Below are positions 521 to 62,629 of a stretch of DNA of 64,000 bases, piece after piece. Numbering within the stretch: position 1 is the first letter of the stretch; each line of letters starts with the position of its first letter. Below the pieces are notes generated by a model, which saw only the letters and a program-made list of their open reading frames with translations, was not told where the DNA came from and did no database searches. The position numbers and the translations under genes are program-made. Source of the stretch: Tipula vernalis (taxonomy: Eukaryota; Arthropoda; Insecta; Diptera; Tipulidae). The stretch spans positions 99,487,930-99,551,929 of the forward strand of contig OY282560.1 of NCBI GenBank assembly GCA_958295665.1, in the 5' to 3' direction.

Positions 521-1888
521 TCAATAAGCCGTACTGAATAGATAACAATACCAAAACTGTTCATTACGGCGATGTACTTTTGCGTAGACGTTTTCGCCTA
601 GAGAGAAACTACGATGTCGGGCTCCGTGGTGTTTGTTAAATTGTTGCTCTTGTTGAATGTTGCGATCCGTACCATGTTCTGGCGTAGGTTTCAACAAATC
701 GAGTTCTATTCGAATTGGCCGACCCAAAAATAGTTCTGCTGGTGACTTCGATTTTTGTCTGTTTCGGTTGGGTGTTGATCGATATGCTTGGAGGAATTTG
801 GTGAGTATTTCCTTGTTTGTCCCCTCCCCCTTTTGTTTATTTAGTGCACTCTTTAGTGTATTGACAAATCGTTCGGGCCCGTTCGACATCGGGTGGTAGG
901 GTGGCGTTAAGATGTGATTAATTCCTCGAGTACGACAGAAATCACTGAATTGTTTACTTACGAATTGAGTCCCGTTGTCGGTTACCAATGTTTCCGGATT
1001 GCCATTATGTGAAAAAAATTCGCTCATCTTCTCGATGCAAGTCGTCGTTGACGTGAGGTTAGTGCATACTTGTACATCGGGAAATATTGAATATGAGTTA
1101 ACAGTGACCAGATACCATTCTCCGTCAATTGGTCTGGCGATGTCTGTATAGACTCATTCCACAGGGCGAATTGCACGTGGCCACGATTGCAGAAGAGTCT
1201 TCATGAATGATTTTGCGTTCTCGTCTGTGATGTCGTCATCAATATTAGGCCAATACACATAGGCTCGGGCAAGTATTTTCATTACTTCGATGCTGAAATG
1301 CGCTTTGTGCAACTGACGTAACATCAGATTTCGGTATCGTTTTGGAATGAAGATTCTGTCACCAAACATAACACAACCGGACACAAACGAGAGTGATTCA
1401 CGTCGATTGTAAAACTGCGCCAGTTCGTCGTCGTCCGGAATTTTCGCTTTTGAATTCAGCCAGTCTGATTTCAAATACTGAACGATTACTCTAAAAGTCT
1501 GGTCGCGCCTCATTTCAGTTTCGATCATTTTTCGTGTAATGGGTAATAGATCCATGATTTCCTCGATTTGATCGGTTATTTCTTCTTCGAGGGGGAGACA
1601 GGCAATTACGTAGTCTTCATCGTCAACTCGGTTTGAGGCGATGAGTTGTGATAGAATATCAGCTGTTCCAAAATCATTTGTCGACATGTATGATATGTCG
1701 AAATCGTATGTTGTTAACGTCAATGCCCACCATTGAAGTCGATTTGCGGTATACACGGGAATTCCGTTTTTCAATCCAAAAATGCTGAGAAGAGGCTTGT
1801 GGTCCGTTACTAATGTAAACCTTCTTCCGTAGATGTACCGATGGAATTTCTTGACTGCGTAGACAAGTGCAAGACCTTCCTTTGCCAC
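521..1888 (-). pseudogene. pol: Gypsy-1 RNase H and integrase
   Basis: One frame with an internal TGA at 1154-1156. RNase H is seen as AKEGLALVYAVKKFHRYIYG and TLVTDHKPLL. The integrase zinc finger half is LHKAHFSIEVMKILARAYVY. The core then reads IDGEWYLVTVNSYS, where the first catalytic Asp (normally V-D-S/A-Y) is Asn, codon at 1097-1099. The second Asp is in VTDNGTQF and the catalytic Glu in NGPERFV. So integrase is dead by substitution as well as by nonsense. The C-terminal tail ends at 521. Confidence 0.8.
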
Positions 1889-11799: not shown

Positions 11800-14700
11800 C
11801 ATACTATTAACTGTAAAACCATGTCTGGAAATAAAACTATGAACAAAATGTAAATCATGGTCAATTCTTAACTTTGCAATTAGTGGAGACATTCTTTTGG
11901 AGCTAAAAGGGTTACATATGACGAAAATCATCCAAAGCCTAATTTGAACGGCTAACGTCCAATATTTAAACTTACTAAACAACCTTCGGTAGTTTGTCCG
12001 GAAATGCAACTGCTAACAAAATATAGACCATGGTCCATTTTTAACTAATCAAATATTGGGGACATTCTCTTGGAGCTATGATGGTTAGATCGGACGATAA
12101 TCACCCAAAGTTTAAATTGAACGGCTAACGTTCAATATTTAAATTTACTAAACCATCTTCGGTAGTTTGTCCCGAAATGAAACTGCTAATAAAATATAAA
12201 CCATGGTCCATTGTTAACTAATGCAAATATTGGGGACATTCTCTTGGAGCTATGATGGTTAGATCGGACGAAAATCACCCAAAGTTTAAATTGAACGGCT
12301 AACGTTCCATATTTAAATTTACTAAACCATCTTCGGTAGTTTGTCCGGAAATGAAACTGCTAATAAAATATAGACCTTGGTCCATTCTTGACTTTTGCTG
12401 TTAGTGGGGACATGCTATTGGAGCTATGAGGGTTAGATATGACGAAAATCACCCAAAGTTTAAATTGAACGGCTAATGTTCCATATTTAAATTTACTAAA
12501 CCATCTTCGGTAGTTTGTCCGGAAATGCAACTGCTAATAAAATATAGACCTTGGTCCATTCTTGACGTTTGCTGTTAGTGGGGACATGCTATTGGAGCTA
12601 TGAGGGTTAGATATGACGAAAATCACCCAAAGTTTAAATTGAACAATCTTCGGTAGTTTGTCTGGAAATGAAACTGCTAATAAAATATAGACCTTGGTCC
12701 ATTCTTGACTTTTGCTGTTAGTGGGGACATGCTATTGGAGCTATGAGGGTTAGATATGACGAAAATCACCCAAAGTTTAAATTGAACGGCTAACGTTCAA
12801 TATTTAAATTTACTAAACCATCTTCGGTAGTTTGTCCGGAAATGCAACTGCTAACAAAATATAGACCATGGTCCATTCTTGACTTATGCAAATATTGGGG
12901 AGATTCTCTTGGAGCTATGATGGTTAGATCGGACGATAATCACCCAAAGTTTAAATTGAACGGCTAACGTTCCATATTTAAATTTACTAAACCATCTTCG
13001 GTAGGTTGTCCGGAAATGAAACTGCTAATAAAATATAGACCTTGGTCCATTCTTGACTTATGCAAATATTGGGGACATTCTCTTGGAGCTATGAGGGTTA
13101 GATATGACGAAAATCACCCAAAGTTTAATTTGAACGACTAACGTTCAATATTTAAATTTACTAAACCATCTTCAGTGGTTTGTCCGGAAATGAAACTGCT
13201 AATAAAATATAGATCTTGGTCTATTCTTGTCTTTTGCTGTTAGTGGAGACATGGTATTGGAGCTATGAGGGTTAGATATGACGAAAATCACCCAAAGTTT
13301 AAATTGAACGACTAACGTTCAATATTTCGTCATCTTCGGTAGTTTGTCCGGAAATGCAACTGCTTAAAAATATAGACCATGGTGCATTCTTAACTAATGC
13401 AAATATTGGGGACATTCTCTTGGAGTATGATGGTTAGATCGGACGATAATCACCCAAAGTTTAAATTGAACGGCTAACGTTCCATATTTAAATTTACTAA
13501 ACCATCTTCGGTAGTTTGTCCGGAAATGAAACTGCTAATAAAATATAGACCTTGGTCCATTCTTGACTTTTGCTGTTAGTGGGGACATGCTATTGGAGCT
13601 GTGAGGGTTAGATATGACGAAAATCACGCAAAGTTTAAATTGAACGACTAACGTTCAATATTTCGTCATATTCGGTAGTTTGTCCGGAAATGCAACTGCT
13701 AATAAAATATAGACCATGGTCCATTCTTGACTTTTGCAAATATTGGGGAGATTCTCTTGGAGCTATGAGGGTTAGATATGACGTAAATCACCAAAGGTTT
13801 AAATTGAACGACTAACGTTCAATATTTCGTCATCTTCGGCGGTAGTTTGTCCGGAAATGCAACTGCTAATAAAATATAGACCATGGTCCATTCTTGACTT
13901 TTGCTGTTATTGGGGACAAGCTATTGGAGCTATGAGGGTTAGATATGACGAAAATCACCCAAAGTTTAAATTGAACGACTAACGCTCAATATTTCGTCAT
14001 CTTCGGTAGTTTGTCCGGAAATGCAACTGCTAATAAAATATAGACCATGGTCCATTCTTGACTTTTGCTGTTAGTGGGGACATGCTATTGGAGCTGTGAG
14101 GGTTAGATATGACGAAAATCACCCAAAGTTTAAATTGAACGATTAACGTTCAATATTTCGTCATCTTCGGTAGTTTATCCGGAAACGCAACTGCTAATAA
14201 AATATAGACCATGGTCCATTCTTGACTTTTGCTGTTATTGGGGACATGCTATTGGAGCTATGAGGGTTAGATATGACGAAAATCACCCAAAGTTTAAATT
14301 GAACGACTAACGTTCAATATTTCGTCATCTTCGGCGGTAATTTGTCCGGAAATGAAACTGCTAATAAAATATAGACCATGGTCCATTCTTGACTTTTGCA
14401 AATATTGGGGACATTCTCTAGGAGTATGATGGTTAGATCGGACGATAATCACCCAAAGTTTAAATTGAACGGCTAACGTTCCATATTTAAATTTACTAAA
14501 CCATCTTCGGTAGTTTGTCCGGAAATGAAACTGCTAATAAAATATAGACCTTGGTCCATTCTTGACTTTTGCTGTTAGTGGGGACATGCTATTGGAGCTG
14601 TGAGGGTTAGATATGACGAAAATCACACAAAGTTTAAATTGAACGACTAACGTTCAATATTTCGTCATCTTCGGTAGTTTGTCCGGAAATGCAACTGCTA

Positions 14701-17700
14701 ATAAAATATAGACCATGGTCCATTCTTGACTTTTGCTGTTAGTGGGGACATGCTATTGGAGCTGTGAGGGTTAGATATGACGAAAATCACCCAAAGTTTA
14801 AATTGATCGACTAACGCTCAATATTTCGTCATCTTCGGTAGTTTGTCCGGAAATGCAACTGCTAATAAAATATAGACCATGGTCCATTCTTGACTTTTGC
14901 TGTTAGTGGGGACATGCTATTGGAGCTGTGAGGGTTAGATATGACGAAAATCACCCAAAGTTTAAATTGATCGACTAACGCTCAATATTTCGTCATCTTC
15001 GGTAGTTTGTCCGGAAATGCAACTGCTAATAAAATATAGACCATGGTCCATTCTTGACTTTTGCTGTTAGTGGGGACATGCTATTGGAGCTGTGAGGGTT
15101 AGATATGACGAAAATCACCCAAAGTTTAAATTGAACGATTAACGTTCAATATTTCGTCATCTTCGGTAGTTTATCCGGAAACGCAACTGCTAATAAAATA
15201 TAGACTATGGTCCATTCTTGACTTTTGCTGTTATTGGGGACATGCTATTGGAGCTATGAGGGTTAGATATGACGAAAATCACCCAAAGTTTAAATTGAAC
15301 GACTAACGTTCAATATTTCGTCATCTTCGGCGGTAATTTGTCCGGAAATGAAACTGCTAATAAAATATAGACCATGGTCCATTCTTGACTTTTGCAAATA
15401 TTGGGGACATTCTCTAGGAGTATGATGGTTAGATCGGACGATAATCACCCAAAGTTTAAATTGAACGGCTAACGTTCCATATTTAAATTTACTAAACCAT
15501 CTTCGGTAGTTTGTCCGGAAATGAAACTGCTAATAAAATATAGACCTTGGTCCATTCTTGACTTTTGCTGTTAGTGGGGACATGCTATTGGAGCTGTGAG
15601 GGTTAGATATGACGAAAATCACACAAAGTTTAAATTGAACGACTAACGTTCAATATTTCGTCATATTCGGTAGTTTGTCCGGAAATGCAACTGCTAATAA
15701 AATATAGACCATGGTCCATTCTTGACTTTTGCAAATATTGGGGAGATTCTCTTGGAGCTATGAGGGTTAGATATGACGTAAATCACCAAAGGTTTAAATT
15801 GAACGACTAACGTTCAATATTTCGTCATCTTCGGCGGTAGTTTGTCCGGAAATGCAACTGCTAATAAAATATAGACCATGGTCCATTCTTGACTTTTGCT
15901 GTTATTGGGGACAAGCTATTGGAGCTATGAGGGTTAGATATGACGAAAATCACCCAAAGTTTAAATTGAACGACTAACGCTCAATATTTCGTCATCTTCG
16001 GTAGTTTGTCCGGAAATGCAACTGCTAATAAAATATAGACCATGGTCCATTCTTGACTTTTGCTGTTAGTGGGGACATGCTATTGGAGCTGTGAGGGTTA
16101 GATATGACGAAAATCACCCAAAGTTTAAATTGAACGATTAACGTTCAATATTTCGTCATCTTCGGTAGTTTATCCGGAAACGCAACTGCTAATAAAATAT
16201 AGACTATGGTCCATTCTTGACTTTTGCTGTTAGTGGGGACATGCTATTGGAGCTGTGAGGGTTAGGTATGACGAAAATCACCCAAAGTTTAAATTGAACG
16301 ACTAACGTTCAATATTTCGTCATCTTCGGTAGTTTGTCCGGAAATGAAACTGCTAATAAAATATAGACCATGGTCCATTCTTGACTTTTGCTGTTAGTGG
16401 GGACATGCTATTGGAGCTGTGAGGGTTAGATATGACGAAAATCACCCAAAGTTTAAATTGAACGACTAACGTTCAATATTTCGTCATCTTCGGTAGTTTA
16501 TCCGGAAACGCAACTGCTAATAAAATATAGACCATGGTCCATTCTTGACTTTTGCTGTTATTGGGGACATGCTATTGGAGCTATGAGGGTTAGATATGAC
16601 GAAAATAACCCAAAGTTTAAATTGAACGACTAACGTTCAATATTTCGTCATCTTCGGCGGTAGTTTGTCCGGAAATGAAACTGCTAATAAAATATAGACC
16701 TTGGTCCATTCTTGACTTTTGCTGTTAGTGGGGACATGCTATTGGAGCTGTGAGGGTTAGATATGACGAAAATCACCCAAAGTTTAAATTGAACGACTAA
16801 CGTTCAATATTTCGTCATCTTCGGTAGTTTGTCCGGAAATGCAACTGCTAATCAAATATAGACCATGGTCCATTCTTGACTTTTGCTATTAGTGGGGACA
16901 TGCTATTGGAGCTGTGGGGGTTAGATATGACGAAAATCAACCAAAGTTTAAATTGAACGACTAACGTTCAATATTTCGTCATCTTCAGTAGTTTGTCCGG
17001 AAATGCAACTGCTAATAAAATATAGACCATGGTCCATTCTTGACTTATGCAAATATTGGGGAGATTCTCTTGGAGATATGAGGGTTAGATATGACGAAAA
17101 TCACCAAAAGTTTAAATTGAACGACTAACGTTCAATATTTCGTCATCTTCGGTAGTTTGTCCGGAAATGCAACTGCTAATAAAATATAGACCATGGTCCA
17201 TTCTTGACTTTTGCTGTTAGTGGGGACATGCTATTGGAGCTGTGAGGGTTAGATATGACGAAAATCACCCAAAGTTTAAATTGAACGATTAACGTTCAAT
17301 ATTTCGTCATCTTCGGTAGTTTATCCGGAAACGCAACTGCTAATAAAATATAGACTATGGTCCATTCTTGACTTTTGCTGTTAGTGGGGACATGCTATTG
17401 GAGCTGTGAGGGTTAGGTATGACGAAAATCACCCAAAGTTTAAATTGAACGACTAACGTTCAATATTTCGTCATCTTCGGTAGTTTGTCCGGAAATGCAA
17501 CTGCTAATAAAATATAGACCATGGTCCATTCTTGACTTTTGCTGTTATTGGGGACATGCTATTGGAGCTATGAGGGTTAGATATGACGAAAATCACCCAA
17601 AGTTTAAATTGAACGACTAACGTTCAATATTTCGTCATCTTCGGTAGTTTATCCGGAAATGCAACTGCTAATAAAATATAGATCATGGTCCATTCTTGAC

Positions 17701-18519
17701 TTTTGCTGTTATTGGGGACATGCTATTGGAGCTATGAGGGTTAGATATGACGAAAATCACCCAAAGTTTAAATTGAACGACTAACGTTCAATATTTCGTC
17801 ATCTTCGGTAGTTTGTCCGGAAATGCAACTGCTAACAAAATATAGACCATGGTCCATTCTTGACTTATGCAAATATTGGGGAGATTCTCTTGGAGCTATG
17901 AGGGTTAGATATGACGAAAATCACCCAAAGTTTAAATTGAACGGCTAACGTTCCATATTTAAATTTACTAAAGGATCTTCGGTAGTTTGTCCGGAAATGA
18001 AACTGCTAATAAAATATAGACCTTGGTTCATTCTTGACTTTTGTTGTTAGTGGGGACACGCTATTGGGGCTGTGGGGGTTAGATATGACGAAAATCAACC
18101 AAAGTTTAAATTGAACGACTAACGTTCAATATTTCGTCATCTTCAGTAGTTTGTCCGGAAATGCAACTGCTAATAAAATATAGACCATGGTCCATTCTTG
18201 ACTTATGCAAATATTGGGGAGATTCTCTTGGAGCTATGAGGGTTAGATATGACGAAAATCACCAAAAGTTTAAATTGAACGACTAACGTTCAATATTTCG
18301 TCATCTTCGGCGGTAGTTTGTCCGGAAATGCAACTGCTAATAAAATATAGACCATGGTCCATTCTTGACTTTTGCTGTTATTGGGGACATGCTATTGGAG
18401 CTGTGGGGGTTAGATATGACGAAAATCAATTAAAGTTTAAATTGAACGACTAACGTTCAATATTTCGTCATCTTCGGTAGTTTGTCCGGAAATGCAACTG
18501 CTAATAAAATATAGACCAT
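11800..18519. repeat. Satellite DNA array, ~166-177 bp monomer, ~997-bp higher-order repeat
   Basis: About 40 head-to-tail monomers. Each holds TTTGTCCGGAAATG, ACTGCTAATAAAATATAGACC, TTGACTTTTGCTGTTAGTGG and GGGTTAGATATGACGAAAAT. Two classes are seen: a longer one with ATTTAAATTTACTAAACCATC and a shorter one with AATATTTCGTCATC. Variant markers recur at fixed distance: TTTATCCGGAAACG at about 14174, 15171 and 16169; the variant GGAGTATGATGG at about 13416, 14415 and 15411. That gives a six-monomer higher-order unit of about 997 bp. The left edge (11800-13300) is the most diverged. Many monomers contain CCATGG. No coding capacity. Confidence 0.97.
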
Positions 18520-28537: not shown

Positions 28538-29101
28538 CTATGTGGACGTTGGCTTCGTCGAATAACTGGAGTTGGATCTACTGTTGCCGTTGTTGGTTCG
28601 GACTCGGTTACCGAAACCTGTTGATTTTGCGGATCCTTGTAGTTGGTGTGGGCTGCTATCTAATGCCGCAGTCGGCGGGCTCTGTCGTTCTCGGATTGCA
28701 TCTGCATGCCTGCGTTTGGTGGTTTGATCGGGAAATGCAACGCTGTATGTCCATCTGTTATTTTGCTGTGTGATTGTCCCAGAGTTCCATTTCGTATCAT
28801 TGTCTGTTCGCACCCATACGTTTTCACCTGCATTGAAATGGCGTTCTTTGATGTTGTCTCTATCGTGGTACAACTGGCTTTTTAAATTATGTCTGTTTAT
28901 GTTATATTTAACGTAACATAAACAGACATAATTTAAAAAGCCAGATGGCTTTATGTTATCGCAGATTGTTGGAAGCCGTCGTCCCAAAAATATCTCAAAT
29001 GAAGCTTTGCCCGTTGTACTATGTGGTGTGTTGAGATAACTAAATAAAAATGCGTTGAGCTGAGCATCGAGATCATCGTTATCCTTCTCGCTTGACTTCA
29101 T
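28538..29101 (-). pseudogene. pol: Gypsy-2 integrase C-terminus
   Basis: Open for 187 codons: LNAFLFSYLNTPHSTTGKAS, FEIFLGRRLPTICDN, then the GPY/F-type domain ERHFNAGENVWVRTDNDTKW, and a Ser/Thr/Asn-rich tail. The catalytic Glu segment, expected just upstream, lies in broken sequence at 29100-29160. An inverted duplication at 28874-28944 inserts residues between KPS and LKSQLYHD without closing the frame. Confidence 0.75.
28874..28944. repeat. Perfect 31-bp inverted repeat in the integrase tail
   Basis: 28874-28904 pairs exactly with 28914-28944 across 9 bp; the arm starts CTGGCTTTTTAAATTATGTC. It looks like a templated snap-back duplication. Confidence 0.95.
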
Positions 29102-29161
29102 TCGTCATTTAAATGTTTGAATGAATCTTTCTGCTAATCCATTTGTCTTTGGGTGGTATGG

Positions 29162-30045: not shown

Positions 30046-31443
30046 TTATGCAAGCGCAATTGGTAAGTCAATTCCGTCGCTGTTGCGATGACTAAGGAAA
30101 GCACCAATTCCTTTGTCTGATGCATCGCATGTAACATACAGATCCTTTTCATCATAATACGGGTGTAACACCTGTGCTCGTGAAAGCTGGAAATTAATTT
30201 CGTTGAAAATTGCTTGTTCATTGCTCGTCCATTTGAAACGTTGATTTTGCCCTGATAGTGTGTGTAAATCAGATGCTGTGCCGTGCAATTTCGGTATAAA
30301 TCGCTCGTAGAAATTTACAAGCCCCATAAATGAGCGTAACTCTCGGGCGTTCGTTGGTAGACTGGCGTTGATTATGGCGTCCAGTTTGTCTTGTGTTGGG
30401 AAGATTCCCTCTTTGTTGAAGCGACGTCCTAAGTACTCCACTTCGTTCTGTAAGAAAATGCACTTCTCTCGTTTGATCCGGAAACCCGCTTGTTGTAATC
30501 GTGTGAGTACTTCTTTTAAATTGTGCATGTGCTCGGCGTTGGTTTTTCCTGTCATAGCAATATCATCGAAGTATATCGCCACTGAGTCAATATTTGATAA
30601 TAATTTTTCCATGTATCGTTGGAAAATAGCTGGAGCGTTTGCTATTCCAAACGGTAATCGATTGTACCTGTAGTATCCCATGTGCGTTGAGATTGTGAGT
30701 AAATGTTGTGACTCTGGATGTACTTCGAACTGTAGATACGCATCCTTTAAATCGATTTTGGAGAATCGTTCTCCACCAGCAAGTATGCGCCGTAAATTAT
30801 CAAATAATGGTACTGGATGTTTCTCCAATAGCAAGCAGTCTCCGTTACGTTTTAGTACGTTTAGAGTTGGTGTAGCCCATTCTACCGGTATTTCATTTGG
30901 ATCGACTGGTGTCAAAACGCCTTCGCTGACTAATCTGTTGATTTCCTTTTCGACATTGTTCTGTATCCCGAATTTGACATATCGGGGGTCAAAGCGTTTC
31001 GGTTTTGCATCATGTTTCAAGTGTATTTTGACTTTGTAGTCTCTGATACGCCTCATTGTATCACTGAATAATTCGTCGTAATTTACAAACATATTTGCTA
31101 ACCCTGTGTGTGTTTGGGATGCCTGTATCATTGTATGTGATTCGGCGTTTGTAATCGAATAAACGTGTGCGGGAAATGGCATGTTGAAAGCCTCGCACCA
31201 TGGTAAACCAAACAAAAACGGGTTTGCCTGTTTCATGACAATTACTGGTAATTTGAGTGTTTCGTTGTTGTAGGTTAGGTGTATATCTGCCTGATTCAGG
31301 GTTTGTAATTGATGACTGCCGTAAGCCATCAGCTTAGGTGCCTGTATTAGCGTTGGTTGACCTATTTGTTTCCAGAGATGTTCATCGAAGATGGAATGTG
31401 ATGCACCAGAGTCGTAATCAAATGTAGCTTTGATTCCATTGAC
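30046..31443 (-). pseudogene. pol: Gypsy-2 protease and reverse transcriptase
   Basis: The frame opens right after the TAA at 31444. The protease active site is ATFDYDSGASHSIFDEH (D-S-G intact), followed by PVIVMKQANPFLFGLPW. RT: FSKIDLKDAYLQFEVHP, YNRLPFGIANAPAIFQRYM, the catalytic IYFDDIAMTG, then FIRKR-type thumb and LRSFMGLVNFYERFIP. RNase H starts at LYVTCDASDKGIGAFLSHR and the frame stops at 30046. All RT catalytic residues visible are present. An ATG at 31327-31329 lies inside the protease and is unlikely to be the true start. Confidence 0.85.
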
Positions 31444-37014: not shown

Positions 37015-38461
37015 CTACAGAGCCACAGCCAGCATAGATTCATAAGGGGTAATAATTGGTTGGCCAGCTAGAAAATGACCCGGCGATAATGTTGACAAAT
37101 CAGTTGGATCATTACTTATCGGCGTCAAAAGTCTTGAATTCAAACATGCAGCGATTTTTGCTAACAACTTGGCTAATTCCTCAAAGGTATACAACTGTGC
37201 TCCACCTTCTTTTTTCAAGTGATTTTTGACTGATTTAACTGCGGCTTCCCAAAGACCTCCTTGGTGCGGGGCTTTCGGTGCATTATAGTGCCACTGGATA
37301 GAATGCGCCTGCAGATATTCATTACTGCTGTGCTTTCCATAGTTCGACCTCCTCATAGAGACTTCTGTCAGCCCCAACAAAATTACCCCCGTTGTCACTA
37401 TACATATGATGGACGGCTCCTGCTCTCAGATTCACAAACCGAATCAATGCAGCAATGAAGGAGTCGGCATCCAATCTGCTGACCAACTCCAAATGAACCG
37501 CCTTGTATACCATACAAACAAATACCGCTATATAACCTTTTATTGTCACATTACGACCTTGCTTTAATTGTACCGGGCCAGCATAATCGACGCCGCAATA
37601 GTAAAACGCTGGTGTCGGCTCTAGTCGGTAGGCCGGCAAGTCTGCCATCATCTGTTGAGCCGCTTCTTGTCTGTGTCGGCAACATCTCACACACTGATGC
37701 ACAACAGGCGCAGCAGAATTCGACATTGCACAATCCAGTACTTGTTTCTTAAATACTGCGTACAAAGTTGCACCCCCCCAATGACATAAATCTTCGTGAG
37801 CCTTGATAGCGATTTTATTTGCTAACATGCTTTTATGATCCAAAATAATTGGTCTCCTTTCACTGAATGGTAACTGTGTGCTGTCCAATCTTCCTCGTAT
37901 TCTCAGCATCTTCCTGTCATCCATCCATGGTGTTAACATCCATAGTCGACTGGATCTTGGCAACCCTACATTTCGAAGCACTGCCCTATATTCAGCTGGA
38001 AATGATTGTTTTTGAGATATAATCAACCAATAATTCAATCCATTGTCAATTTCGTTAACTGATAATCCAGGAACGAGTACTCTCTCTCCTCCTATCATCA
38101 CTGTGACAACATTGCTCCCTTCTAACGTTGGTATTTCATGGTTAACCAAAAGGCTGTTTGCCTTATTATCATTAGTCCTTACTCGTCTCCTTCTGACAGT
38201 TTCAAAATACAACCTACAAAATCGAATAACATACGCCGCTATACGACATACTGACTCATAAGACGATATTTTGTTCATTAAATCGATTTCTTGATTATCA
38301 CTCCCGACCATCGTTAGCAGGCCATTATCAAACTTTACCGCTGGATCCTTGCATTCCGACTGAATCTGCTCCATTACTTCTTTCCCAAATACCTTCGGGG
38401 CCCATATTGGCCAACCTTCAACATCCTACCTTAACAAGTCTGGACCTTTCCACCATAATTT
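37015..38461 (-). pseudogene. pol: Pao-C integrase
   Basis: It begins at the deletion joint with WWKGPDLL in one frame, then 37322-38374: AAYVIRFCRLYFETVRRRRV, KMLRIRGRLDSTQLPF, the finger (KAHEDLCHWGGATLYAVFKK, VHQCVRCCRHRQ), the core with GVDYAGPVQLK (first Asp) and MYSDNGGNFVGADR (second Asp). After a frameshift near 37390, 37015-37398 gives PHQGGLWEAAVKSVKNHLKK with the catalytic Glu and AACLNSRLLTPI. All three catalytic residues survive. Confidence 0.85.
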
Positions 38462-44880: not shown

Positions 44881-46452
44881 TTTTGCCGCGCGTTGAAATA
44901 TTATTTTTCAACATTCTTCCTTGGAAGCATCGAGTGGTAGTGGACATAGTTTTGTAATGGCTCGTCATATTATACCAGATTTGATTTTGACGGATGCAAC
45001 GCTTGTTCGGTCATCGCGTCCTGGATGGATTTCAACGATTTGTCCTAATAGCCAAGATGCGGGTGGTAAACGTTCGTTACTTACGAATACTAGTTGTCCA
45101 ATACGAATATCTAGTTTAGATGAAATACATTTTGAACGCTGTTGTAACGTGTTCAGATATTCCTTCGACCATCTCTTCTAAAAAGACTGAACCATGGATT
45201 GAATCTTGCTCCATTTTGGCAGTCTACCGATCGTGGTATTGGTTATATCAGGTTCATTTAGAAAGACGTAGTTCGTCCCAGTAAGAAAATGACTGGAAGT
45301 AGGCGGTGTAAGGTCGTTACGGTCGTCGGAGGGTTGAGTTAACAATCGTGAATTGAGATAACCTTCAATTTCGATGATAATCGTTGTTAGTTCTTCGAAG
45401 TTTAACAATTGTTCAGCTACTACCCGTTTCATATGGAATTTTATGGATTTAACTCCAGCTTCCCATAAACCGCCGTGATGAGGTGAGCCGGGAGGTATGA
45501 ATTTCCAGACAATTCCTTCATAAAGATGTTGAACTCTTGGAGTATGTTGTTTGCTCCCACAAAATTGGTGCCGTTATCACTGTACATGGTAGCCGGCTTT
45601 CCCCGTCTGGCTATGAATCTCCTTAAGGCGACCAAAAAGCATTTGCTGGTAAGGTCACTAACCACCTCCAGATGAAGCGCCTTTGTGCAAAAGCAAACAA
45701 AAACTGCAATATACGATTTATATTGCGCCGAACTACGAGGGTTTTGGTTGCGCGTCATAAATAGTCCACAGTAATCAACGCCGACGATGTGAAATGCACG
45801 ATTAGGTGTTACACAGTCTGCGGGTAAATCGGCCATGAATTGTATCATTGGTTTGGGTTTTAATTTAAAAGATCTGACGCATTGATTAACCATCCCCTTT
45901 GCTTGGGTTTTACCATGTATTGGCCAGAATGTATCGCGCACTTTCGACAGCAAGAGTTGCGGCCCACAGTGAAAATATTTTTCGTGATGGTGACGCATTA
46001 TAATCGTAGAGACATGATGTTTGTCCGGAATGAGAATTTGATGCTTGCGATCAAACGTTAAGTTGCTGTGCCGGAGTCTTCCTCCGACACGAATGATTCC
46101 GGATGGATCAAGAAATAGTACCAATTGCTTAACCGAGCTTTTCGGTCTTACTTCGCCATTTTTGTGCAAACTCTTAAGTTCGTCTGAGAACGATTGAAGC
46201 TGCACCATTTTTATTACGCAGTTTCGTCCGCGCAACATTTCCTGAGCTGACAGCGTTGATTGAAATATTCGGTGGTCATGCGACATTCGAGCATTGTCTA
46301 TAAATCGAAGACAATATGAAGTGACTCTCAGTAACGTGACAAATGAGGAATAGCGTTGAAGTAAACTATAATCGTCAACCGGAGTCGCGTGAGTATGCAA
46401 TGACACTCGGCCAATGGGCCTTAATTCGGGCAATTCAATAGACAATACATAT
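44881..46452 (-). pseudogene. pol: BEL-D integrase
   Basis: Resumes right after the nested transposon: SIELPELRPIGRVSLHTHAT, VTSYCLRFIDNARM, GIIRVGGRLRHSNLTFDRKH, finger HHEKYFHCGPQLLLSKVRDT with VNQCVRSF (second Cys is Ser), core VGVDYCGLFMTRNQ (first Asp), MYSDNGTNFVGANN (second Asp). A frameshift near 45520 leads to PHHGGLWEAGVKSIKFHMKR with the Glu and EIEGYLNSRLLT. The C-terminal part (45178 down to about 44900) is in further frames: IRIGQLVFVSNE and LGQIVEIHPG. Confidence 0.85.
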
Positions 46453-46490
46453 CGCCCCTTCGGAGTAACAAAGACGTAAGTGCAAATTTG
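46453..46490 (+). repeat. Left terminal inverted repeat of the DUF7869-like transposon
   Basis: CGCCCCTTCGGAGTAACAAA then GACGTAAGTGCAAATTTG. Partner at 51471-51507. Confidence 0.8.
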
Positions 46491-46787
46491 TAAAAGTCTG
46501 CGAAAACGTCTTTAAAGTTTGTGAAATTTTTAAAGTTCAAAATGACGGCTATAGAATACAACTTTTGCGGAATTTAAATGTTCAGTGAATCCTTTAATTT
46601 GTACTGTTGTCAGCATCAGTTGATTTTTTTTCAATAGTTTGCAGTATACCCCTTTTAGAGGTTTTATGTCAGAAGACCTCCTCAATTGTGCCATTGTTGT
46701 CCTGGGGCTTCGTAATATTTTTTTAATTAAAACAATTAATTCAATATGTGAGTTCAATTATTATTTCGTATTTTTATTATTTATATA

Positions 46788-48162
46788 GGTTTTGCACTCC
46801 AAATTCAACCTTTTACAAAACATGTTCATCCTTTTCCAAATCAAATTCGCCTTTATCCAAATCAAATTCACCTTTATACAAAACATATTCATCCTTTTCC
46901 AAATCAAATTCAAACTGCCAAATTAAAATTCATAATAAAGGCATTTTATTGGTTAATAATATTATAATAAATAATATAATAATAGGGTTGAGCATGGGCG
47001 AGTAAGGCGAGAGAAAAACTAAATGATGGCCTGACTGATCCACAAACTCACGAACTTCCTGCGTCTTATGAATTCTTGCATTGTCAAGCACCAACCAAGC
47101 ATTTATTATAGATAAAGTTCGGAGTTTTGTAAATAATCCATTAAGAAATTCACAAAATATATTTGAATTAACTGACGAGTTGCCAATTATTTTGTGATGT
47201 ACTACTTCATTTATGTTCATGGCAGCGATGAGTGAAACGTTACGGCCTCTTACGGTAGGAACCACTACTACATGTGCCGCCGTATTTATCCGCGATCGCG
47301 CCTTGCTTCGTCGAAGGTGGTAGTTGAATCCTGATTCATCAATAAAGATTATATTTTCTCTTGATTGTGGAGCATGTAGATGCCGCATTAAGACGATCAA
47401 GGTTAATCGTAGCACATTTTAATGTTATTTTTAATTGTTTTAAACCGTTGCTTATCGTAGATGTACACAACTCAATGTTGTCAGTTTCCATAATTGTTGC
47501 GAATATTTTCAGCGTAATCCTGGGGTTTTCTTCTATTAAGCACTCAATTTTATTTAAAATTGTTGAATTTAATTTTACGATACGTCCGCCACCGTATTTT
47601 TTCGATAATCTCACCGCCATTTTTATTACAATAAAATCTCTTATAATTGATTTGGCTGTACTTTTATTTATTCCAGCCATTTCTGCAGACTCACTAATGG
47701 AACGTCCTTCGTCATAAAATTTAATTAAAATATTTTTTTTTCAACGCTGGTACGGTTGTGTTTGATCATTATTACTTTTTTTTTATATACATATTATATT
47801 TGATTTTAATTAATTAGTAATTTTGCATTTTGAGTGCAACCACTATTGTATGTATTGAAGTATTGAAAATGAACTAACAACAATTAATCATTAAGGTAAC
47901 AGCGATTTTTGATAACAGTAAAGGTTTATTTATTTTATTATATTAAATAAATTCTGTTGGTTATCGTCTACGGTTGAATTTGATTTGGAAAGGGATGAAT
48001 ATGTTTTGGATAAAGGTGAATTTCCTTTGGATAAAGGTGAATTTCCTTTGGATAAAGGTGAATTTGATTTGGATAAAGGCGAATTTGATTTGGAAAAGGA
48101 TGAATATGTTTTGTAAAAGGATGATTGTGTTTTGTAAAAGGTTGAATTTGGAGTGCAAAACC
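46788..48162 (-). mobile_element. Tc1/mariner-superfamily element with long repeat-rich TIRs
   Basis: Terminal sequence GGTTTTGCACTCCAAATTCA (46788) pairs with 48143-48162; TATA lies outside both ends, consistent with a TA target duplication. The inverted ends are long: left about 46788-46918, right about 47970-48162, built of alternating AAATCAAATTC and CCTTTATCC/CCTTTTCC units. The right arm has extra GGATAAAGGTGAATTTC copies. It sits 14 bp beyond the stop of the DUF7869-like gene. Confidence 0.85.
46930..47765 (-). pseudogene. Transposase of the Tc1/mariner element (DDE_3 type), truncated
   Basis: The N-terminal part (47339-47700) is a helix-turn-helix: YDEGRSISESAEMAGINKST then KKYGGGRIVKLN and NPRITLKIFATIM. 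The frame at 46930-47415 holds the catalytic domain: NIIFIDESGFNYHLRRSKAR (first Asp), GRNVSLIAAMN, AWLVLDNARIHKTQEVREFV (second Asp) and LVFLSPYSPMLNPI. The catalytic Glu after N-P-I is missing: the text turns into an Ile-rich run and a stop. One frameshift near 47400. It cannot transpose itself; TIRs remain usable in trans in principle. Confidence 0.8.
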
Positions 48163-48178
48163 TATATTAACAGAAAAA

Positions 48179-51021
48179 TTAGTAAAGATTGTTAAAAAAA
48201 TTTTCGTAATATTTGGGAACAATATTTGTATTTATCATTTTTATTAAATCATCTTTTTTTCTACCCGAGATGATTATTTTGCCCTTGTAAACTTGTTTAA
48301 GAACAACAATATTACTCGAGTTACTATTTTTTTTGTTGATTGAACGACCCCTGGTTCTAATCGGAGCTTCGATCCAATCATCTTCATACCCAAGTTTATA
48401 ATGGTAAGAATTCGCTCCCTTTTTGAATTCCACCATCTTTATTTGAGTAATCTTTATTTGATCACCGTTTAAATTTTTTATTGCGTTAAAATTCATGTCC
48501 TCGGCCAACGATTTTAAATCAAAGAAGTCGCTGAATGTTAATTCATTAACTTTAAATGGCTCTCCTCGCTTTTTGCAGTACGTATAAGAGAAACGTACTG
48601 ATCTGGGACGTATATCGGTCCAGATTTTCTCGCTCTTTTTATATTCTGCTCTATAACAGAATGGGCTGTATCTCCCTCATTTTGAGTGTGGCCTCTTATA
48701 AGAAATTTGTGGGTTATGCTGTTTATACTTAAATAAGTAACTGCATATAGATACATAGCCATTACGAAACTGAAACAAAGACTATCACTACAATTTAACA
48801 AAAATTTAAAAGTATTTACCTAGAATACCAACCGGTTTTTTTGCTGTCCACAACAATTATCCGAATAAAAAATTAGGTCACAGTTGGGATGACTTTGTTC
48901 TATTTCTTTTAAATATTTAAGGACACATGAACCGATTTCAATTGCTCCTCGGTGTCTCAAACCTTCGTGCCAAAAATAACACCTGGTAATTTTTGTGTTG
49001 GTATCTGTGATCTGAAAACAGGCAATCATTTTAAAACCGCATTTCATTTCCAAAATCTGTTTGAACACAAAAATTCAAAATGATCGATTTGAATATCAAA
49101 ATTATATGAACATCTATAAAATGCTAGAAATCATCGATTTTATTAGAATAACACTTCATTTATTTGGAGAATCAGATCAAATTATACTTACAGGAGATAA
49201 TCAAATTATACTTACTGTAAAATTATAGCAGTTCAGTTTTGAGTGGTAAAAAAATGCGGAAGAATCTCCTATTGGGACAGGCATTACAGCCTGTAAATCG
49301 TAAATTGCAACAATTTGAATCGAACCGGAGTCCTTACTCTTTTCAATGTCTTTTGCTTTCTCTTGTCGACTTAATTCTTTCTGTTTTTGATGTTCTTTAT
49401 AACTCTCCTCTAATCTTAATTTATCATCTCCAGTTGAGTTCTTGAAAGCTTCACATTGCTCACATTGATCCTTTTTTGGAACATGAAACCCAATGTTGAA
49501 TTCAGTATTGAATATGTAAGAATACGCATCATAGTTCGCTGATGGCTTATCAGCCAACTTACGTAGAGATTCATAATTTCGGTGCATCTCTGCTATGGTA
49601 AGTCCACCATCTATAAATTCTCGGCTGTTGGTAGATCGCACATAGTGACTTTCTATTCTAGGTATAGAATTTATGTGTACCCGTACCGATCCTGTAACTT
49701 CTTCATCTAGTTTGGAATGATGATTGTGTTTGCCTCGATTGTCATCTGGTGTTGCTCCGATCCCACTAAATTTAGCCTCCACAACAGTGCGAACAGATCT
49801 CGCTTTGATTCCTAGTGTACTCATTAGGAACGGCTTACATATTTGAATTTTTTTTCCGTCTTGTAGAAAAACAAATGAACAGTTTGGTCTTCTGGGCTGA
49901 ATAGAATTCATCTTCACTCTTCTATATTGAACCTGTAAGATCTCAATACATGTACCCAAAAAATTGCGTTGCTTTTCAAATGAAGATAACGACCAATATT
50001 GTTGAAATAAGATTTTCCTTGCATCTTCTGGTACTTTAGTCGCACAGCTAAGTCTGCACTTACAGGGTGGACCCATTTTCCTTTCCTCTACAATTTTCCC
50101 ACGAGATGATAAATATGATTTACCTGCATTTTTTAACATTTTTCGTTTGTTATTTTTCCACTCCTCAGGTTTTCTTTGTCTTTTTTTCCCTTTTTTCTTT
50201 GCTGAAGTGTTGTCATCATTTACAATAGAATTTTCATTATCATTTTCTAAGTTGCCAGAATTTTCATTATTGTCAGTATATACAGAAGTATGTTTTCTAC
50301 CCCCCGAGTCGGTATCAGATGACGAAGATAAACCGATTTCTGCAGGAGGTATATATTCATTGCTGTCATCTGCAGAAAATGGATCTTCATCTGACGAGTT
50401 TCCTACTTTATAACTTGAGCAGTTTACTCGCTTAAATCTTAATTTCAAATTCGGCTGTTGTTCCTTTTGAGAAATTTCTGAAACTGAAACGGAGAAAGTT
50501 TCTTGATAAATTCGACATAATGTTGCAAATTTGAATTTTTTGTGATTAACTGTTTTATACATACCATGGTTAGATTGATCATTTGAAAATGAGTTAAAAT
50601 CCATTTTCGTAGGATCAACTTCTTGTAAAACACATAAATCACTTTGCAGTTTTACAGGTACCTTAATTTTTTCCGAAGGCATGAAGGAATTTGGTTGTTC
50701 AAGAAAGCTTTCATTTTCGTTCGTTACGATTATTTTATCTAAAAATTAAACCATTTGTAAAAAAAAATGCAGTTTTTTTAATAAAATAGCTATCATATAA
50801 TACATAAACATACTTTCATTGCTTTGGCATGTTTTAGGAGGATTGTTAATACAATCAGCCTCTGTTGCTGAATATTTTTTCACATTTTCCGTATTTTCTT
50901 CGGCTTTTTGAGAATTTGTTGCCGCGGTCATTTGAGCTAAAAATTGAAAAGTTTTTGATGTACCGGCCACATTTTGTTCTTCTAGTGCTAATCGCATTAA
51001 CTTTAGCCCTCGAGGCTCCAT
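48179..51021 (-). CDS. DUF7869-like putative transposase gene, four exons, one frameshift
   Basis: Exon 1 51021-50814 starts MEPRGLKLMRLALEEQNVAG. A 75-bp GT-AG intron leads to exon 2 (50738-49216): acidic Ser-rich and KKKGKKRQRK nuclear-type region, MGPPCKCRLSCATKVPEDAR, RGKHNHHSKLDEEV, SIPRIESHYVRSTNSREFID, VPKKDQCEQCEAF. A 204-bp intron leads to exon 3 (49011 to about 48830) with IFYSDNCCGQQKN. Exon 4 (48769-48179) has HKFLIRGHTQNEGDTAHSVI and LTFSDFFDLKSL. Exon phases agree at the first two introns; the third donor reads GG where GT is expected. One A is missing from an A-run (T-run 48570-48574), shifting frame before GEPFKVNEL. Family function is unproven; conserved Asp blocks and TIRs suggest an RNase H-fold transposase. 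Confidence 0.75.
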
Positions 51022-51470
51022 GTTTTTCAAACTAAAATATTATTAAAATTAAAAATCACTAACAGAACACAATATTTAACTGTTTAGTTTTGCATACAAA
51101 TTACTGTTATTCAGAGGAACAAAGACACATTCCTCAGTAGTACAGTTTTCATAAATTCATAATGACATTAAAATTGAGAAAACATCAACATAAAGTACAT
51201 TTGGGTCTTTGTTAATCCAAAATAAATTATTATATTTTTGTCATAATTACCTTTGTGACGTTGTAGTACTAATACCTCCACTCGATATGAAATCTCGTTT
51301 ATAACTGAATAATCGGACGTTGTTGTTCCCGTTAGGAATATCATTCGCACAAATACAACAAAGACACAACGCATTCTAACGATTAGTATTCGAGGTACAA
51401 TTAGGTCTTTGTAAATACAGATAGTTGAAACGTTTTGTAACCGTTTGGCATTAAAATCTCGGTTTTCAAA

Positions 51471-51507
51471 AAATTTGCACTTATGTCGTTGTTACTCCGG
51501 AGGGGCG
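51471..51507 (-). repeat. Right terminal inverted repeat of the DUF7869-like transposon
   Basis: Reverse strand reads CGCCCCTCCGGAGTAACAAC then GACATAAGTGCAAATTT. Confidence 0.8.
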
Positions 51508-58202: not shown

Positions 58203-58231
58203 TATAGAATGAAAATGCTCAAGTTTCGTTT

Positions 58232-59137
58232 CCTTACCTGCAATGGACACAGAAAATTAAAGTTGTTAATACAATTATTGATTTCAAATTAGATTCGGGG
58301 GCGGACGTTAATTTGATCACAGAAAATGAACTGAACAGCATAAATAGTGAGATTAGTTTAGAACGTACAAATGTAGGGCTCAGAGCATATGGTGGTATAA
58401 AAATTCCAGTATTAGGTAGTATATATTTAAATTTAAAGTGGAAAAATTTGATGTATAAGGAACCATTCATAGTAGTAGATTTGAAGGCTACACCCATTCT
58501 AGGACGTGAGACGTGTCAAAAGTTAGGTTTAATTAAAAGGATTTTAGAAATTACCAAAAGTGATAAAGAAGGCTTTATAAATAACAATATAGAAATATTT
58601 AAAGGTTTGGGTAAATTTTCATTGAAATTAGATTTAAAAATAAAAGAAAATGTGCAACTGGTTATAAGGCCACCTAGGAGATTACCTTTAACTATAAAAC
58701 CGAAAGTAGAAAAAACACTACAGGAGTTGGTAACATTAAATATTATTGAACCATTAGATGAAACGGCAGAATGGATAAGCAACTTAACAGTAGTGGAAAA
58801 ACCAAATGGCACACTACGGCTCTGTTTATATCCAACATTTTTAAATGAAGCGCTGATGAAGGAACATTATTTAATTCCGACATTAAATAACCTTAAGAGT
58901 GTATTAACAGGGGTCGAATATTACACAGTGCTAGACCTCAAAGATGGGTTTTATCAAATTGAGTTGACTGAAGAAGCGTCAAAACTTTGTTCTTTCAGTA
59001 CTCCTTTCGGTAATTTTAAATTTAATAGATTGCCGTTCGGGCTAAATGTAGCACCAGAATCGTTTCAAAAATTAAATCAGAAAAATTTTGATATATTACG
59101 ATATATTAATTACGGGGAAAACAGAGGCCGAACATGA
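58232..59137 (+). pseudogene. pol: Gypsy-3 protease and reverse transcriptase, first part
   Basis: The protease site is IDFKLDSGADVNLIT (D-S-G intact), then TPILGRETCQKLGLIKRI. RT: ETAEWISNLTVVEKPNGTLR, YYTVLDLKDGFYQIELTEEA, FNRLPFGLNVAPESFQK. The RT frame then loses register just before the catalytic motif. The usual strand between ESFQK and the active site is shortened. Confidence 0.85.
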
Positions 59138-61342: not shown

Positions 61343-62629
61343 CAGGGTGACTGACACGAAGTGTTACCAACTTCAGACTGTTATTGCTGTCAAACCAGTG
61401 ATGACAGAGCGCTCAAATTTACACTAATGACAGTTCATTCCATTGTTTACAAGCGTACAGAAGCATTTTAGTGGGAAATATTCCGGAAAAAAGTTATCCG
61501 CAATGGAATTCAAGCGTAATAGTGTGATTTCTCTATATTTGGCTGGAAAATCACAGCCGCAGATTGTTAGCCAGTTAAAACATCTGCATGTGAATAAAAT
61601 GTTTGTGTATCGCACCATAAATCGTTATAACGATACTGGCAGCATTGCAAAACGCCATGGTGATGGACCGAAACGCACTGCAACATCGCCGTATATCATT
61701 CGGAAGGTGAAGGCCAAATTGGCTCGGAATCCGCGCCGTAGCGGCAGAAAAATGGCTCGTGAGGCGAACATTTCGCTCGAACGGATGCAGCACATATTGA
61801 AAAATCATCTTGGGCCAAAGGCCTTGAAATTACATAAAACGCATGGTCTCACCGATGCTCAAAAAAACGTTAGAGTGGAAAGAGCAAAGGAGTTGTTACG
61901 CTTGCACGAAAGTGGCGATTTGCCGAATTTGGTTTTCTCCGATGAGTCACCGTTCATTATTGAGCAATATGTGAACAAGCAAAACGACCAGATTTACTTG
62001 CCCAGCCATTATACTGAAAATTTGGGCCAACGGATGGTGATGGTTTGGGCCGCCGTAACGGCCGAAAGCCGTTCACCGCTCGTTTTTTTGGACCGTGGCA
62101 TCAAGATAAATGCTCAAATTTATGGGGACCATGTGTTGGAGGGAGCGTTGATGCCTTAGGCACAAAAACATTTCGGCCGCAGAGCTTGGACATTTAAACA
62201 GGACTCGGCGCCGAGTCATAAAGCGCGCGTCAATGAAGATTGGCTGAGAAACAACGCTCCGCGGTTCATTTCCACTGCCCAATGGCCACCAAATTCCCCG
62301 GATGCAAATCCGCTAGGTTTCTCGGTTTGAAGTATTTTGAAGAGCAAGGTTGGGACAAAAAAATACCAAAGTGTCGATCATCTCAAGCAAGCGCTTCGCC
62401 CGGGAATGTGCCAAAATACCGCAGAGCCACTTTCGTGCTGCATGCAATAGCTTTGTTGGCCGTTTGAAGGCCATAATCGCGGCTAAAGGTGGACAAATCG
62501 AAAACTGCTAGTGCAATTCGAAAATTTAAATATTTGTGAACATTTTTTACTTTGATTCAATAAAATTCATCAAAAAATTAAAAATTCTGTGGCATTTTGT
62601 TTTGGCAACACTTCATGTCAGTCACCCTG
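61343..62629 (+). mobile_element. maT-like (DD37D) mariner-superfamily element
   Basis: TIRs of about 28 bp: CAGGGTGACTGACACGAAGT at 61343 and its inverted partner ending at 62629. TA lies outside both (61341-61342, 62630-62631), the expected target duplication. It contains one plus-strand transposase gene with three disabling lesions. Length 1.29 kb is normal for the family. Confidence 0.9.
61503..62511 (+). pseudogene. maT-like transposase, disabled
   Basis: The start is the ATG at 61503. An HTH pair covers residues 1-110 (SVISLYLAGKSQPQIVSQL, then SGRKMAREANISLERMQHIL). Catalytic domain: NLVFSDESPFIIEQ with the first Asp, MVMVWAAVTAESRSPLVFLD, then after TAG at 62157-62159, TFKQDSAPSHKARVNEDWLR with the second Asp, and WPPNSPDANPLGFSV. 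The third catalytic residue, expected as N-P-L-D 37 residues after the second, is Gly. A TGA follows immediately. Both stops replace Trp. One frameshift near the end; the family's final segment reaches a TAG at 62509. Confidence 0.85.

What the first reader, a model, noticed from the sequence alone, without database searches (positions are those of the whole stretch)
46453..51507. Candidate little-described DNA transposon family: TIRs plus spliced DUF7869-like gene
The gene's product has S-D-N-C-x-G-Q-x-K-N and H-x-F-L-I-x-G-H-T-x-N-E-x-D blocks found in many uncharacterised insect proteins. Here it is enclosed by 34/37-matching inverted repeats beginning CGCCCCTTCGGAGTAACAA and inserted in a retroelement. 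That argues such proteins can be transposases of a mobile family. The superfamily assignment is open.
Basis: partly seen in the sequence, partly recalled or inferred. Interest (0 to 1): 0.75.

Follow-up and report, generated by a model that had tools for sequence, protein, structure and literature searches.

The report
DUF7869 cut-and-paste DNA transposon
The stretch is a DNA transposon with matching inverted ends that carries a DUF7869 gene, which now looks like its transposase; relatives of that gene sit between their own matching ends elsewhere in the same genome, so many unnamed insect proteins are probably transposon machinery, most likely of the already described Sola type.

Summary
Confirmed and taken further. 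The 5,055-bp element (46453-51507) has 37-nt inverted ends matching at 34 positions (best of 20 shuffles 29). Its BEL/Pao host has 34 copies spanning the insertion point without it; 10 of 10 fetched agree on the empty site. The ends recur in this 1.27-Gb genome: 15 copies have both, one of them 99.1% identical to the window copy outside its nested Tc1-like insert. A second DUF7869 family has other ends in 8 pairs (24 sites, 0 in the control). Of six further DUF7869 loci, 5 have inverted ends. Perfect 4-bp duplications flank 14 of 27 copies, 4.8 expected; 12 of 14 are AWWT. Three Asp are near-invariant in 240 relatives. DUF7869 is therefore very probably a DDD transposase. Duplication, triad and size fit Sola (Sola2), but no Sola transposase could be compared and no fold could be modelled. 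The window copy has a frameshift and blurred junctions.

The parts
46453..46489 (+). left terminal inverted repeat (37 nt, starts CGCCCCTTCGGAGTAACAA)
   Evidence: 34 of 37 match the right end; same ends at other loci
51471..51507 (-). right terminal inverted repeat
46453..51507 (-). whole element (5,055 bp with nested insert; about 3.68 kb without)
   Evidence: L034 is 3,675 bp and 99.1% identical over both parts outside the nested insert
50814..51021 (-). exon 1 of the DUF7869 gene (starts MEPRGLKLMRL)
   Evidence: splice motifs by eye
49216..50738 (-). exon 2, with the CxCxxxC motif and first Asp (YDLQ, codon within 49282-49308)
   Evidence: tblastn 56% identity to P0001 (L033)
48833..49011 (-). 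exon 3, with the second Asp (SDNC, within 48843-48870)
48179..48769 (-). exon 4, with GHTQNEGD (third Asp, within 48666-48693); frameshift near 48570; stop at 48179-48181
   Evidence: compare L034
46787..48163 (-). nested Tc1/IS630-like transposon (DDE_3 transposase in pieces), inserted downstream of the DUF7869 stop codon in a TA-rich site
   Evidence: absent from L034 at the same point
51119..51412 (.). subterminal repeats ACAAAGAC (51119, 51205, 51358, 51405; also 48775 and in the left TIR at 46468): 6 of the 7 occurrences in the window lie in the element; possible transposase binding sites (inference)
   Evidence: 5-6 per element in L031-L034
51508..53738 (-). host BEL/Pao pol, upstream part (up to the end of RNase H)
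45441..46452 (-). host BEL/Pao pol, downstream part (integrase)
   Evidence: empty sites

Best explanation
A cut-and-paste DNA transposon whose own gene, the spliced DUF7869 gene, encodes its DDD-type transposase. The transposase is thought to bind the ~37-bp ends (5'-CG...) and perhaps the subterminal ACAAAGAC repeats, cut at both ends, and join them to a 4-bp staggered cut at an A/T-rich site of the form ANNT (mostly AWWT), which is filled in as a 4-bp duplication. The window copy landed in a BEL/Pao pol gene, took a Tc1-like insert and a frameshift, and is now probably dead; very similar copies elsewhere show that the family moved recently. Most likely it belongs to the Sola superfamily (Sola2 branch; about 0.6). 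Shown: ends, copies, duplication length, empty site, conservation of three Asp. Inferred: catalysis by DUF7869, RNase H fold, binding sites, superfamily.
For: TIRs beyond chance. 15 copies with both ends, 1.3 to 9.2 kb; L034 99.1% identical, L031 98.6-99.4%. Second family: 24 TIR sites against 0 in the reversed control, 8 pairs; four long copies fetched, 99.1-99.5% identical, three with a stop-free 656-aa frame and the fourth with 560. Six other DUF7869 loci: 5 with TIRs of 28-36 matching positions (L080, L081, L082, L084, L085), 1 (L083) without. 4-bp duplications perfect in 14 of 27 copies, 4.77 expected when flanks are mispaired, reached by 0 of 200,000 shuffles; leaving out ATAT/ATAT pairs, which being palindromic could also be outer TIR bases, 7 of 20 against 1.55, reached by 35 of 200,000. 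Empty sites: 34 matches across the junction, 10 of 10 fetched alike there, one with a single base difference. 66 DUF7869 stretches at about 59 places in the genome, a lower bound. Asp484 239/240, Asp562 240/240, Asp604 239/239, 41-43 residues between the last two in 238 of 239. A crude propensity average, read by eye, gives the strand and helix order of RNase H folds with the three Asp at the expected places.
Against: 13 of 27 copies lack a perfect 4-bp duplication, among them young ones and the window copy, whose flanks carry 7 bp absent from the empty sites. On the first 13 copies alone 2 bp also gave 6 full matches (p=0.087, 4 bp p=0.0165) and 12 bp gave p=0.006 with no full match. No structure model could be made. 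Profile comparison of the DUF7869 core with the BEL/Pao integrase gave nothing above shuffled controls; that test has little power. No Sola transposase was available. L083 has no clear TIR in the 5.2 kb fetched. Transposition was not observed.
Confidence: 0.92

Rival explanations
1. DUF7869 transposons are a superfamily of their own, not Sola, that happens to share 4-bp A/T-rich duplications and a DDD triad.
For: No other transposase model of Pfam is among the 14 families that hit any of 37 members at E<=0.1; C/DxxH in 1 of 96 and CxxC in 0 of 96 between second and third Asp; 5'-CG termini in all seven sets of ends seen, some of them related to each other (single copies vary, and in four loci I placed the border at CG by hand).
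Against: AWWT duplications, a DDD triad and size are those reported for Sola2/Sola (PMC3627910 section 11 read; PMC10741241 passage).
Confidence: 0.3
2. The DUF7869 protein is a passenger or a captured host gene, and the element is moved in trans by a transposase of another family.
For: Biochemical function of DUF7869 is untested; Pfam lists it as a domain of unknown function.
Against: Families with different ends all carry DUF7869; in the window (apart from the nested Tc1-like insert) and in the four family-2 copies it is the only long frame seen (frames over 400 aa). Three acidic residues are nearly invariant. 5 of 6 further loci have TIRs.
Confidence: 0.05
3. The inverted repeats are a chance or assembly feature around an ordinary single-copy gene.
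For: The window copy has no clean target duplication.
Against: Shuffles, recurring ends, empty sites, 99% identical copies at other loci.
Confidence: 0.01

Closest known systems
Sola superfamily, Sola2 branch
   Same: DDD transposase, 4-bp duplications, most elements 2-9 kb, TIRs 11-1124 bp (Sola; PMC10741241 passage); A/T-rich AWWT duplications such as ATAT, AAAT, ATTT (Sola2; PMC3627910 section 11); Sola is reported from mosquitoes and Sola2 from bivalves (PMC7728395, PMC10294476 passages)
   Different: No sequence comparison made; ends and protein motifs of published Sola2 families were not seen; two of 14 duplications here (ACAT, ATGT) are ANNT but not AWWT
piggyBac and Kolobok
   Same: 4-bp duplications
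   Different: they use TTAA (Kolobok and piggyBac: PMC9587614 passage); none of the 14 perfect duplications here is TTAA; no Pfam match
Pfam DUF7869 (PF25273)
   Same: all 37 members scanned and the window product match it
   Different: listed as a domain of unknown function
hAT / MuDR / P / Kolobok / Dada group
   Same: TIR elements with DDD/E transposases; MuDR duplications range from 4 to 10 bp (PMC10045372), so length alone does not exclude it
   Different: the shared C/DxxH signature is found in 1 of 96 only; no Pfam match

Membership tests
Sola superfamily (Sola2) | 4-bp target site duplication | tested here: met
   14 of 27 perfect at 4 bp against 4.77 mispaired; 7 of 20 against 1.55 without ATAT/ATAT. 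On 13 copies: 4 bp 6 full, p=0.0165; 2 bp 6 full, p=0.087; 12 bp 0 full, p=0.006
Sola superfamily (Sola2) | A/T-rich AWWT duplication (reported for Sola2 in dictyostelids) | tested here: met
   12 of 14 perfect duplications are AWWT; definition from PMC3627910 section 11
Sola superfamily (Sola2) | DDD transposase | tested here: inconclusive
   three near-invariant Asp, but fold and catalysis untested; Glu602 (237 of 239) could be the third residue instead
Sola superfamily (Sola2) | transposase sequence converges with known Sola transposases | not testable with these tools
   no Sola sequence available; Bao et al. 2009 not held
Sola superfamily (Sola2) | TIRs (11-1124 bp), most elements 2-9 kb | tested here: met
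   TIRs about 29-37 nt; end-to-end lengths 2.7-4.3 kb for L034, the family-2 copies fetched and five further loci; range from PMC10741241
piggyBac / Kolobok | TTAA duplication | tested here: not met
   0 of 14 perfect duplications
hAT/MuDR/P/Kolobok/Dada | C/DxxH between second D and last D/E | tested here: not met
   1 of 96; definition from PMC10045372 and PMC9587614
CMCT (CACTA, Mirage, Chapaev, Transib) | C(2)C between second D and last D/E; mostly 5'-CA termini | tested here: not met
   CxxC in 0 of 96; termini are 5'-CG; definition from PMC12730594 passages
PHIS, Ginger, Academ, IS481EU, Novosib and others | transposase similarity | tested here: inconclusive
   no Pfam transposase model other than DUF7869 hit, but not every superfamily is known to have a Pfam model; some make duplications of about 4 bp
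Pfam DUF7869 | score above gathering cut-off | tested here: met
   41.5 bits against 26

The most novel reading that the evidence does not exclude
DUF7869 defines a transposase superfamily of its own: large, mostly unannotated, spread through insects and at least one mollusc, with 5'-CG termini, ANNT 4-bp targets and an unusual habit of leaving blurred or filled-in junctions (here a filler that is the inverse complement of the target), hidden in databases as hundreds or more of 'uncharacterized proteins'.
Probability: 0.27. Interest if true: 0.75.

Novelty: new member of a known kind. Interest (0 to 1): 0.55.

Why it matters
DUF7869 proteins are listed as uncharacterised genes in many insect genomes. 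Showing that they lie between inverted ends with 4-bp duplications turns a Pfam family of unknown function into a probable transposase family, warns that such gene counts are transposon counts, and offers recently moved copies for a direct excision test. If it is Sola2, the result links an orphan Pfam model to a known superfamily; if not, it is a new superfamily.

Tried and rejected
Structure prediction was asked for six times and never opened, so fold searches were not run. PDB sequence search with the profile gave 15 hits, all in the N-terminal low-complexity part, best E=0.043. NCBIfam gave scattered hits in one or two members of 37, best E=0.0011. No relative confirmed by tblastn in viral contigs, GTDB genome contigs or plasmids; DNA search in phages empty; exact TIR pattern in viral contigs 0. 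hhalign against BEL/Pao integrase negative, score 13.9 against 11.6-17.5 in eight shuffled controls. Duplication lengths of 2-12 bp were compared on 13 copies: 3 and 5-11 bp show nothing, 2 bp is not significant, 12 bp has p=0.006 but no full match and was set aside. In one search hits with 3 mismatches are noise (90 hits in all against 81 for the reversed control), so only the 34 hits with up to 2 were used. Left out of the duplication count: L043, L047, L048, L050 (second end not found in the stretch), L049 (no similarity: chance hit), L083 (no TIR); three further <=2-mismatch sites (in L027, L029, L030) were not followed; one of the two C2:1994 copies with identical flanks was not counted. 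No paper in the held CC-licensed library contains DUF7869 or PF25273; that says nothing about subscription journals or Repbase Reports.
Full report
What is there. The element runs from 46453 to 51507. Its ends match at 34 of 37 positions; dinucleotide shuffles of the region, with the nested insert left out, never exceed 29 of 37 in 20 trials, and the 19-base end is never met in 100 shuffles of the window. Inside, on the minus strand, four exons give an 834-residue reading (X at the frameshift included) whose only Pfam match is DUF7869, E=1.4e-10. A Tc1/IS630-like transposon (46787-48163, DDE_3) is nested downstream of its stop codon.

Host and empty site. The flanks are the two parts of a BEL/Pao pol gene. 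Of 37 BEL/Pao proteins returned, 26 carry both flank peptides in order (three of the upstream matches are weak, E 0.019-0.044). In the genome itself the joined 600-base flank has 45 matches: 34 run across the junction without the element at 84-93% identity, two are the window's own halves, and nine are shorter pieces, one of which (279-600) also crosses it. Ten of the 34 were fetched around the junction; all ten read GAC(A/T)AT^ATGTCGAT there, the T in one of them. The window reads GACAATACATAT|element|AATGTCG, that is 7 bases more than the empty site. This is compatible with a 4-bp ATAT duplication blurred by small changes, but it is not a clean duplication. The added ACATAT is the inverse complement of ATATGT at the target.

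Copies. The window lies in a 1.27-Gb assembly of 340 contigs, three of them 371-464 Mb. The 19-base end occurs at 34 places with up to 2 mismatches. Of 20 stretches fetched, 15 have both ends. L034 is 3,675 bp and 99.1% identical to the window copy in both parts outside the nested insert, which it lacks; L031 is 98.6-99.4% identical and has another 1.13-kb insert; L032 is a 1,323-bp internally deleted derivative, 98-99% identical. L034 reads 833 residues without interruption, the window copy 713. The remaining 11 copies align in pieces at 78-96%, so the family is old as well as recently active.

Other DUF7869 families. A search with a butterfly relative (P0001) gives 66 matched stretches at about 59 places, a lower bound (59 of 6,467 candidates scored). 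One group with equal frame lengths was followed: four copies 99.1-99.5% identical, 3.93-3.95 kb, with ends CGCACCTCCCATTCAAGACTAT. Those ends occur 24 times with up to 2 mismatches against 0 for the reversed pattern, in 8 pairs, two of them 1,043 bp long with the same flanks. Six more loci were then taken from the list, all with stop-free matches and not chosen by their flanks: 5 have inverted ends of 28-36 matching positions, 1 (L083) has none. Some of these ends resemble each other or family 2 (L085 shares CCCATTCAAGACTAT). One of the five (L081) belongs to a divergent clade (about 35% identical to P0001), so the rule is not confined to close relatives of the window gene.

Target duplications. 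On 13 copies, 4-bp flanks agree perfectly in 6 (19% expected, p=0.0165); 2 bp also in 6 (33% expected, p=0.087); 12 bp has p=0.006 without a full match. With all 27 copies counted, 14 are perfect at 4 bp against 4.77 expected: ATAT 7, AAAT 3, ATTT 2, ACAT 1, ATGT 1. ATAT is palindromic and could be outer bases of the TIR; without ATAT/ATAT pairs 7 of 20 are perfect against 1.55 (35 of 200,000 shuffles reach it). In L080, L081, L082 and L085 the inverted match ran one to four bases beyond CG and I set the border at CG, as in the multi-copy families. Thirteen copies are not perfect, including young ones; I cannot explain this. Imprecise joining, filler synthesis or recombination between copies are possible.

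Protein. Two searches gave 371 and 687 relatives; the 120 best of each were listed and compared, 240 in all. Asp484 is kept in 239 of 240, Asp562 in 240 of 240, Asp604 in 239 of 239, Glu602 in 237 of 239, Glu527 in 240 of 240 (P0001 numbering). The spacing between the second and third Asp is 41-43 in 238 of 239. The strand and helix order (crude average, read by eye) fits RNase H, but no model could be made. Named rows come from Lepidoptera, Coleoptera, Hemiptera, a caddisfly, a stick insect and the limpet Lottia (orders from general knowledge); several species appear more than once (Euphydryas editha four, Sitophilus oryzae three rows). Most rows have no name.

What it is. The evidence for a transposon is direct; that DUF7869 is its transposase follows from its being the gene shared by families with different ends and from its three near-invariant Asp. 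Cut-and-paste rather than another mode is inferred from TIRs and short duplications. Among known superfamilies, Sola encodes DDD transposases with 4-bp duplications (PMC10741241, passage), and Sola2 elements of dictyostelids have AWWT duplications (ATAT, AAAT, ATTT; PMC3627910, section 11 read). Sola elements are reported from Aedes and Culex mosquitoes (PMC7728395, passage) and Sola2 from bivalves (PMC10294476, passage). This agreement makes Sola2 the most likely home, but the defining test, sequence convergence with Sola transposases, could not be made. TTAA superfamilies, the C/DxxH group and the CMCT group fail tested features; other superfamilies with duplications near 4 bp are disfavoured only by lack of a Pfam match.

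Reliability. Exon borders are my reading of splice signals, not transcript evidence. Counts from the genome are lower bounds by the tool's own statement. That the host is a mosquito is a guess from three contigs of 371-464 Mb and is not used in the argument.

Noticed in passing
window 46787-48163: Nested Tc1/IS630-like transposon with long internal inverted repeats made of CCTTTTCCAAATC-like units; its transposase is in two pieces. L034 lacks it.
   Followed up: partly
window 11822-18519: Tandem satellite array, main period 164 bp, 39 copies, 88% matches.
   Followed up: no
window 521-1153, 30046-31443, 58208-59137: Pieces of further retroelements (rve; RVT_1 and RT_RNaseH_2; RVT_1). Of six ORFs scanned there, two (28538-29104, 37322-38425) had no hit at E<=0.001.
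   Followed up: no
window 61431-62159: ORF with a paired-like helix-turn-helix (HTH_32, E=4.1e-05, under its cut-off); looks like a Tc1-type transposase.
   Followed up: no
L031 2919-4051: 1.13-kb insert with inverted ends GTA(C/G)TGCGATTTTGTTGTGTACATG inside another copy of the element.
   Followed up: no
L066-L069 (C2:199460729 and C2:199497332): Two 1,043-bp, probably non-autonomous family-2 copies about 37 kb apart with identical flanks (14 bases each side seen), so probably a segmental duplication; both have ATGT on both sides.
   Followed up: partly
window 46447-46452: Filler ACATAT at the left junction is the inverse complement of the target ATATGT.
   Followed up: no
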